Origin: Eremomyces bilateralis CBS 781.70
Lineage: Eukaryota > Ascomycota > Dothideomycetes > Eremomycetales > Eremomycetaceae
Length of the DNA: 64,000 nt
Assembly (NCBI RefSeq): GCF_010015585.1
Contig: NW_022985068.1
Location: forward strand, 836,123 to 900,122
Direction: 5' to 3'
This document shows positions 29,715-60,553 of the stretch, one piece after another. Made by a program: the position numbers and the translations under genes. Numbering within the stretch: the first letter of the stretch is position 1; each line of letters opens with the position of its first letter. The notes under the pieces were generated by a model. It searched no databases. It was not told where the DNA came from and saw only the letters and a list, made by a program, of their open reading frames with translations.

Positions 29715-30881
29715 ATGGCCTCCAACACTGGCAAAGGACGCGACGCCGGCGATTCGATCAACGGCGCTCCCGCCACTCGTGAACCCGAGCCGCTCATCAA
29801 GGTGCAACCTCCGCGCCGTGAAGACCTACAGCCCTCGTACGCGCAGGACATCCATCCCGACACAGAGGATGCATCGGCACATGGCTGGTATGGTGGCATG
29901 GTCGACGCTTTCGGACAGGTTATTGGTACCCTGGGTGCCGTTCCGTGCTGCCCCTTCCCGAATCCGTATCGACCTGTCAACCAGGGCAACGTGGGCTTGG
30001 TGACCAAGTTCGGCCGATTCGCCAGGGCGGTTGATCCAGGTCTTGTTAAGGTCAATGTATTGAGCGAGAAGATCATTCAGGTGGACGTCAAGATTCAGAT
30101 TGTCGGTATGTGTTTGCGATGCGAAGCTGGTTGATATGCCCAAAGCTGATTGAACCTACAGAGGTCCCGCAACAGGTCTGTATGACCAAAGACAACGTCT
30201 CTCTCTACCTCACGTCCGTCATCTACTACCGTATCACTTCGCCTCACAAGGCCGCCTTCGGCATCAGCAACATCCGCCAAGCTCTCGTCGAACGCACACA
30301 AACCACGCTGCGTCACGTCGTCGGTGCTCGCCTGCTTCAAGACGTCATCGAACGCCGTGAGGAGATCGCGCAAGACATCCGCAGCATCGTCGAGGAAATC
30401 GCGGCCGGCTGGGGCGTGGACGTGGAAAGTATGCTCATCAAGGATCTGATTTTCAGCCAAGACCTCCAAGACTCGCTGTCCATGGCGGCGCAGAGCAAGC
30501 GAACGGGAGAAGCCAAGGTCATCGCCGCGCGTGCGGAAGTCGAGAGCGCCAAGTTGATGAGGCAGGCCGCCGATATCTTGTCCAGCGCACCGGCCATGCA
30601 GATTCGATACCTCGAGGCCATGCAGCAGATGGCAAAATCTGCCAATAGATAAGTCCCTTCGCTTCCTCAACACACCCCTGCATGCTAACTTTCTTTGTAC
30701 TAAGGTGATCTTTTTGCCGTCCAGCAACCAAGGCGTCACGGAACAGATGACTCGCCTTGCCGATGGCCCTGAAGGGAGCAATTATGGAGGTGGTGAAGGC
30801 AGCAGTGCCGCGCAGGAATATGGACATGGGAATGATGGGATGCAAAGGGCGATCAACTCGGCTGTCATTGAACGCATGTAG
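29715..30881 (+). CDS. Stomatin-like SPFH (band 7) protein
   Basis: Three exons, 29715-30105, 30162-30648 and 30701-30881, give 352 residues. The N-terminal 75 residues are hydrophilic. A hydrophobic/Cys membrane-associating segment follows (VIGTLGAVPCCPFPNPYRPV), then the SPFH domain with GNVGLVTKFGRFARAVDPGL, VDVKIQIVEVPQQVCMTKDN and YYRITSPHKAAFGISNIRQA, and the helical TTLRHVVGARLLQDVI and RTGEAKVIAARAEVESAKL. Stomatins form oligomeric membrane scaffolds; fungal members affect polarity and plasma-membrane domains. The last intron appears to be AT-AC: reading through gives a stop after AKSANR, whereas AT-AC splicing restores KSANSKVIFLP, matching the conserved stomatin C-terminal NS-x-[IV]-[IV]-F pattern. 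Translation upstream of 29715 in the same frame has only a GTG start and is not included. Confidence 0.9.
30649..30700 (+). other. Putative AT-AC intron (52 nt) in the stomatin-like gene
   Basis: The intron begins ATAAGTCC and ends TTTGTAC, with a consensus branch site GCTAACT whose branch A lies 12 nt before the end. The only GT near the donor lies after an in-frame TAA. AT-AC splicing gives an in-frame join AG|T producing NSKVIFLP. The donor resembles the U2-type GTAAGT with G1 changed to A rather than the U12 donor ATATCCTT. Confidence 0.75.
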
Positions 30882-56742: not shown

Positions 56743-56790
56743 GTGCTGCGAAATGCGGCGAAGTGCTGCGAAGTGCTGCGAAGTTGCTGC
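56743..56790. repeat. 10-bp tandem repeat, GTGCTGCGAA x4 (one copy diverged)
   Basis: Copies at 56743, 56753 (ATGCGGCGAA), 56763 and 56773, then a partial GTTGCTGC. Lies in the gene-poor region between the transporter and UDP-galactopyranose mutase. Confidence 0.8.
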
Positions 56791-59812: not shown

Positions 59813-59851
59813 CTCCTCGACTCCTCGACTCCTCGACTCCTCGACTCCTCG
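59813..59851. repeat. 8-bp tandem repeat, CTCCTCGA x4.9
   Basis: Four perfect copies plus seven bases of a fifth, followed by a degraded copy (CCCTCGACTCTCGA). No function is suggested. Confidence 0.85.
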
Positions 59852-60553
59852 CAGCCCTCGACTCTCGAAGATTCAAGGCAAACATAAACACGGGATCGAC
59901 CCACTCCAAACCGCGGATAGCAGACGTTGGCAATCTCAAATTAACTTGGAATGCATAGGAGGTGAGCCTTGTAGTATTATTAGCTACCCTATCCTTTTGT
60001 TTGTCCGGTATTACCTGGAAGGTATGTTGGTAGATCACGGATAGGATGATAGACACAACAGCTTTGGCAACAACAGCTGCAATCATCTTGATACAGACAC
60101 TGTTCGTCCATTGTTGCCACCGCCAGGGCTCCACTAGAGATGGATAAGATAGGAGTAGCACAGCCATGCGAATGTCCGAGTGACCCCTTACAGTGACATT
60201 ATTATGGATGATGAAGGTAAAAGTAGCATTCATGCTGCAAGCGACTTGTTTGGTTTAGCGCCTATGGACAACCTGGAAATAATTTTGGTCCACTCTCTAG
60301 CCCCATACTATCAACCAGCTTCCTCTCCTCGCGCTGCCCTCAACGCTGTTCACCTTCGTCCCAAATCCTACCAGAGATCACAGCTGTATCCGATTTTAGC
60401 CTCTTTACCAATACCGTATCCTACATTGACATCTGGCAAGCACGTGTGGTGCAATTGCATTCGCTTAAGGGACTCGTCCGATTCCCGCTCCCCTGAACAT
60501 TTCCTCTTCAAGAATACACACCTGGACCACATTTCCCGCAACAAGATCTCACG

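What the first reader, a model, noticed from the sequence alone, without database searches (positions are those of the whole stretch)
30649..30700. AT-AC intron in a stomatin-like gene
The last intron reads ATAAGT...TTTGTAC with a normal GCTAACT branch site. No GT-AG pair gives an open frame here: the only nearby GT follows an in-frame stop. AT-AC splicing gives AKSANSKVIFLP, which fits the conserved stomatin C-terminal pattern. The donor looks like a U2-type site in which G1 became A, with the terminal G of the acceptor changed to C, a combination known to be spliced by the major spliceosome. AT-AC introns are rare in filamentous ascomycetes, and automatic gene callers would truncate this protein after SANR.
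Basis: partly seen in the sequence, partly recalled or inferred. Interest (0 to 1): 0.75.

Follow-up and report, generated by a model that had tools for sequence, protein, structure and literature searches.

The report
AT-AC intron in fungal stomatin gene
A fungal stomatin gene almost certainly contains an intron with the rare ends AT and AC instead of GT and AG; it is a genuine but known kind of exception, and the public protein record of this gene lacks its conserved tail because of it.

Summary
Positions 30649-30700 form a 52-nt intron, ATAAGT...GCTAAC...TTTGTAC. Removing it gives a 352-aa stomatin-family protein reading AKSANSKVIFLP at the junction. Of 1368 donor/acceptor pairs around the stop that restore the frame, only this pair gives SANSKVIFLP; none is GT-AG. 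NSKVIFLP is exact in 114 of the 119 other listed relatives; the other 5 differ slightly. Exon 3 matches 117 of 119 in this frame (all E<=1e-3) and none in the other frames.

Retention, AT-AG use at 30704 and the nearby GT would all give that same short protein. The donor suits the major (U2) spliceosome, pairing at 7 of 8 positions with the genome's U1. U12, U6atac and U4atac gave no match, but without ringing controls.

It is a new member of a known kind: U2-type AT-AC introns. No RNA reads or relatives' DNA could be reached, so splicing itself and the origin (switch from GT-AG, new gain, or U12 relic) are untested.

The parts
29715..30105 (+). exon 1 of the stomatin gene, ATG at 29715
   Evidence: the protein start agrees with deposited P0001
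30106..30161 (+). intron 1, ordinary GT-AG (GTATGT...CTACAG)
   Evidence: the same junction is used in P0001
30162..30648 (+). exon 2, ends ...GCC AAT AG (phase 2)
30649..30700 (+). intron 2 with AT-AC ends, 52 nt
   Evidence: the only frame-restoring pair of 1368 that gives SANSKVIFLP
30649..30654 (+). donor ATAAGT; with exon AG (30647-30648) pairs at 7 of 8 positions with the U1 5' end
30650..30652 (+). in-frame TAA that ends the deposited 293-aa model
30684..30690 (+). branch site GCTAACT, branch A probably 30688
   Evidence: same CTAAC-to-end spacing (11 nt) as 30 GTAAGT..CTAAC..TAG candidates (median 10.5)
30698..30700 (+). acceptor TAC
30703..30704 (+). first AG after the branch site; its use would give the 293-aa ...SANR product
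30701..30881 (+). exon 3, SKVIFLP...AINSAVIERM, stop TAG 30879-30881
   Evidence: peptide matches 117 of 119 relatives, all E<=1e-3; other frames and reversed peptide match none

Best explanation
The segment is a spliceosomal intron with AT-AC ends, removed by the major (U2) spliceosome, in a stomatin gene of a dothideomycete, most likely Eremomyces bilateralis. U1 binds the donor through 7 of 8 pairs although A1 is unpaired; U2 uses the ordinary branch site GCTAAC; in the second step the first base A and the last base C make a non-Watson-Crick contact that directs exon ligation to TAC rather than to the AG four bases on. The mRNA then encodes the full 352-aa stomatin. Shown: the sequence, the unique frame and junction fit, the conserved exon 3, and the standard U1 and U6 ends. 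Inferred: that it is spliced in the cell, the base-pair mechanism, and that no minor spliceosome is present.
Against: No RNA evidence was reachable. The species and gene are represented by one assembly only (P0001 comes from the same gene). U12, U6atac and U4atac searches were negative, but no control genome rang, and U11 was not searched, so absence of the minor spliceosome rests on papers; [quoted passage not shown] A U12-branch-like TTCCTCAAC lies in the intron. An AG lies only four bases past the AC.
Confidence: 0.9

Rival explanations
1. The deposited 293-aa model is right: the segment stays in, or is cut through the AG at 30704, and the protein ends ...AKSANR; exon 3 is an untranslated remnant.
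For: P0001 is deposited so; retention, AT-AG at 30704 and GT at 30653 all give this product.
Against: Exon 3 keeps an open, conserved frame (117 of 119); 0 of the 119 other relatives end there; the AC end and branch site would have no reason to fit.
Confidence: 0.05
2. Two isoforms: AT-AC splicing is inefficient and both the 352-aa and the 293-aa proteins are made, perhaps in a regulated way.
For: All alternatives tested converge on one 293-aa product; AT-AC is less efficient than GT-AG in yeast (PMC6726248 passage).
Against: No direct evidence; the immediate stop would follow from any AG|RTAAGT donor in this phase. Compatible with the main explanation rather than opposed to it.
Confidence: 0.3
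3. Removal by a minor (U12) spliceosome.
For: AT-AC ends; TTCCTCAAC at 30663-30671 matches 8 of 9 of a recalled U12 branch consensus (39 of 2000 single-base shuffles reach this).
Against: Donor matches the U12 consensus at 3 of 8; the motif ends 29 nt before the 3' end, further than usual (recalled); U12, U6atac, U4atac not found (controls silent); no minor introns in Ascomycota by survey.
Confidence: 0.02
4. GC-AG intron 30641-30704 giving AKSVIFLP, or a sequencing error that hides a GT-AG intron.
For: The GC-AG pair keeps the frame and gives 348 aa.
Against: Its donor GCCAAT is poor, and 0 of 119 relatives read K[ST]VIFLP. An error would need two separate wrong bases, exactly at both ends.
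Confidence: 0.03

Closest known systems
U2-type (major spliceosome) AT-AC introns, e.g. human SCN4A intron 21 (PMC2831892 passage)
   Same: AT-AC ends with G at +5, A at +4 and T at +6, the features that PMC2831892 section 16 names for these introns
   Different: Short fungal intron with a strong CTAAC branch site, in a fungus reported to belong to a group without minor introns; origin unknown
AT-AC junctions in ascomycetes (Fusarium graminearum PMC3577648, Trichoderma longibrachiatum PMC4324775, SnowyOwl models PMC4084796; passages)
   Same: Rare AT-AC ends in filamentous ascomycete genes
   Different: Those are counts from transcripts or models; this one is inferred from protein homology without RNA
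Yeast G1-to-A / last-G-to-C intron mutants and the SUT635 AT-AC protointron (PMC6726248 passage; Parker & Siliciano 1993 recalled and cited there)
   Same: The same pair of end bases with the major spliceosome as the only machinery
   Different: Here a natural intron needed for a conserved coding sequence, not an engineered or non-coding one

Membership tests
U2-type AT-AC intron | intron begins AT and ends AC | tested here: met
   by unique frame and junction fit; not by RNA
U2-type AT-AC intron | donor otherwise U2-like (G at +5, U1 complementarity) | tested here: met
   5 of 6 to GTAAGT, 7 of 8 U1 pairs
U2-type AT-AC intron | U2-type branch site at the usual distance | tested here: met
   GCTAAC, 11 nt to the end against a median of 10.5 in 30 candidates
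U2-type AT-AC intron | removed in vivo by the U1/U2/U6 machinery | not testable with these tools
   needs RNA and snRNA experiments
U12-type intron | RTATCCTT donor | tested here: not met
   3 of 8
U12-type intron | TTCCTTAAC-like branch site close to the 3' end | tested here: inconclusive
   8 of 9 match at 30663-30671, but 29 nt from the end (consensus and usual distance recalled)
U12-type intron | minor snRNAs in the genome | tested here: inconclusive
   U12, U6atac, U4atac no match, but no control genome rang; U11 not searched; U6 found as a positive
Stomatin / Band_7 (SPFH) family | Band_7 domain over the curated cut-off | tested here: met
   PF01145, 118.7 bits against 23.6, residues 88-256; stomatin structures hit

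The most novel reading that the evidence does not exclude
A fixed natural AT-AC intron that arose, in a fungus without a minor spliceosome, by a coupled change of both end bases of a GT-AG intron. PMC2831892 (section 16) holds that existing AT-AC U2-type introns come from U12 introns and that switching the ends would need simultaneous mutations; this would be a natural crossing of that barrier in a conserved gene, buffered by extended pairing with U1 and by a fallback short isoform.
Probability: 0.45. Interest if true: 0.4.

Novelty: new member of a known kind. Interest (0 to 1): 0.25.

Why it matters
[quoted passage not shown] If relatives carry GT-AG at the same place, it becomes a natural double switch that can be dated and used to ask how such switches are tolerated. 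It also shows that AT-AC introns missed by gene callers can be found where a model stops short of its relatives.

Tried and rejected
Relatives' DNA: scans of viral contigs with P0003 and with the 14-protein alignment A2 found no relative; the genome-contig scan gave 3 distant prokaryotic relatives (28-34% identity); a plasmid search gave 961 records, all under 60% identity. The orthologous intron in other fungi could therefore not be compared.

Other AT-AC introns in this genome: ATAAGT..CTAAC..TAC gave 29 places, all cut out and scanned for joined open frames (one search read one strand only and so reported 13 of 29, mended). Three places have a joined frame of 60 codons or more on both sides: the target L007, L012 and L026. 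L012 reads by eye as an ordinary GT-AG intron (GTATGT...GCAG) in an ArfGAP-like gene (sequence; label recalled). L026 looks AT-rich and non-coding to my eye; no homology test. ATATGT..CTAAC..TAC gave 42 places, of which 30 were cut out and scanned; of the best, L055 is an ordinary GT-AG intron, and L045 and L060 contain ordinary GT...AG pairs by eye only. ATAAGH..GCTAAC..YAC gave 30 places, none cut out then, several shared. This is not a census.

Extra exon pairing as adaptation: AG before GTAAGT occurs in 18 of 327 candidates (backwards controls 12 and 5 against 103 and 93) and in 0 of 30 read ones, near what chance gives, so the AG at 30647-30648 may be luck.

A variant U1 pairing with A1: rejected for the 2 copies found. 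Loss of Prp18 as a cause of lax acceptors: rejected, Prp18 is present.

Paper searches. No listing showed a paper on this intron or on this gene of Eremomyces. Papers were seen as listings or passages, except section 16 of PMC2831892, read whole.

The probability of the novel case is lowered from 0.5 to 0.45, because nothing here tells a switch from a new gain.

Full report
What was claimed and whether it is there. The window holds a stomatin-like gene on the + strand: exon 1 29715-30105, an ordinary GT-AG intron 30106-30161, exon 2 30162-30648, then 52 bases ATAAGTCCC...GCTAACTTTCTTTGTAC at 30649-30700, and exon 3 30701-30881. In exon 2 the frame meets TAA at 30650-30652, inside ATAAGT. Splicing AT to AC gives 352 aa with a Band_7 domain (PF01145, 118.7 bits).

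How specific the junction is. I listed all donor/acceptor pairs with donor 30600-30652 and acceptor 30655-30759 (35-120 nt) that restore an open frame to the stop at 30881. There are 1368; none is GT-AG, 7 are GC-AG, and exactly one gives SANSKVIFLP: 30649/30700. In a wider scan from 30560, 5 GT-AG pairs keep a frame open, all from GTCCAG at 30580. Three of them replace the conserved stretch before the junction by an unrelated reading and rejoin at KVIFLP; two delete conserved residues.

What relatives say. A search of 5.8 billion proteins found 2301 with E<=0.001 among the 7999 candidates scored; the best 120 are listed. One is this gene itself: P0001, 'hypothetical protein P152DRAFT_409085 [Eremomyces bilateralis CBS 781.70]', 293 aa, ending AKSANR. 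Of the other 119, 114 contain NSKVIFLP exactly and 5 read NSKVIFMP (two), GSKVIFLP, SSKVIFLP or NSKVVFMP; none ends at ANR, and none reads K[ST]VIFLP as the 30641-30704 GC-AG alternative would. The exon 3 peptide matches 117 of 119 by phmmer in the frame that AT-AC selects, all at E<=1e-3 and 110 at E<=1e-5; the two other frames and the reversed peptide match none. In human stomatin (9oh9) the same stretch aligns as NSTIVF-PLP, so the junction lies inside an old conserved segment.

Could it be chance? ATAAGT-N18..48-CTAAC-N4..24-TAC occurs 29 times in both strands of G000, about 5e-7 per strand position for the 28 others (my arithmetic). The pattern was written after the fact, and its backwards control matched 81 and 76 times, more than the 13 and 16 forward, so the pattern alone is no evidence. 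The unique protein junction is.

Machinery. The donor with its exon AG pairs at 7 of 8 positions with the U1 5' end ATACTTACCT seen in two loci of this genome (both U1 matches, 60.4 and 55.9 bits, lie below the family's cut-off of 69.5). Neither copy has a change that would pair with A1. U6 (85.9 bits, over its cut-off) carries ACAGAGA. Length 52 and CTAAC-to-end 11 nt fit 30 GTAAGT..CTAAC..TAG candidates with medians 53 and 10.5; 17 of those 30 have both flanks open for 40 codons. Prp18 is present. U12, U6atac and U4atac gave no match, but none of the tool's control genomes rang for them either, so this is weak; U11 was not searched. Published surveys find no convincing minor introns in Ascomycota (PMC10639083 passage; [quoted passage not shown]

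Mechanism. PMC6726248 (passage) states that yeast has no minor spliceosome, that some major-spliceosome introns use AT-AC, and that in a mutated yeast intron AT-AC is the most efficient pair after GT-AG. [quoted passage not shown] On this basis A1 and the last C should meet, sending ligation to TAC and past the AG at 30703-30704. This step is inferred. If splicing fails, uses that AG, or uses GT at 30653, the product is in each case the same 293-aa protein ending SANR, so a short isoform beside the long one is possible but untested.

Origin. A GT-AG ancestor needs two end changes. PMC2831892 (section 16) proposes that existing AT-AC U2-type introns stem from U12 introns and are then trapped. 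Here the donor is far from U12 (3 of 8), yet TTCCTCAAC at 30663-30671 matches 8 of 9 of a recalled U12 branch consensus, a level reached by 39 of 2000 single-base shuffles, though it ends 29 nt before the 3' end. I rate a U12 relic as unlikely. Relatives' DNA would decide; none was reachable.

Verdict. It is a natural U2-type AT-AC intron, rare but known in ascomycetes: AT-AC is among the non-canonical types listed for F. graminearum, where seven shown sites were confirmed by Sanger sequencing (PMC3577648; I did not see which seven); 69 of 14305 junctions (PMC4324775); 0.03% (PMC4084796); 0.09-5.19% (PMC6176087); all seen as passages. It is interesting mainly as a neat case and as the cause of a truncated public protein.

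Noticed in passing
window 30663-30671: TTCCTCAAC inside the intron matches 8 of 9 of a recalled U12 branch consensus (39 of 2000 shuffles reach this), but lies 29 nt from the 3' end; possibly chance, possibly a relic.
   Followed up: partly
window 30649-30704: Retention, AT-AG at 30704, and GT at 30653 with AG 30704 or AC 30700 all give the identical 293-aa product ending SANR.
   Followed up: yes
L035 (G000:C2:825516-825649, about 10.5 kb before the window) and L036 (G000:C32:60915-61073): Two U1-like RNA genes, both with the standard 5' end ATACTTACCT and both below the Rfam cut-off.
   Followed up: partly
L055 (G000:C10:700641-700713, - strand): A 49-nt GT intron whose conserved-looking frame needs the acceptor GAAG, skipping a CAG four bases upstream.
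   Followed up: partly
window 56743-56790 and 59813-59868: Short tandem repeats, 10-nt GTGCTGCGAA x4.7 and 8-nt CTCCTCGA x7.
   Followed up: no
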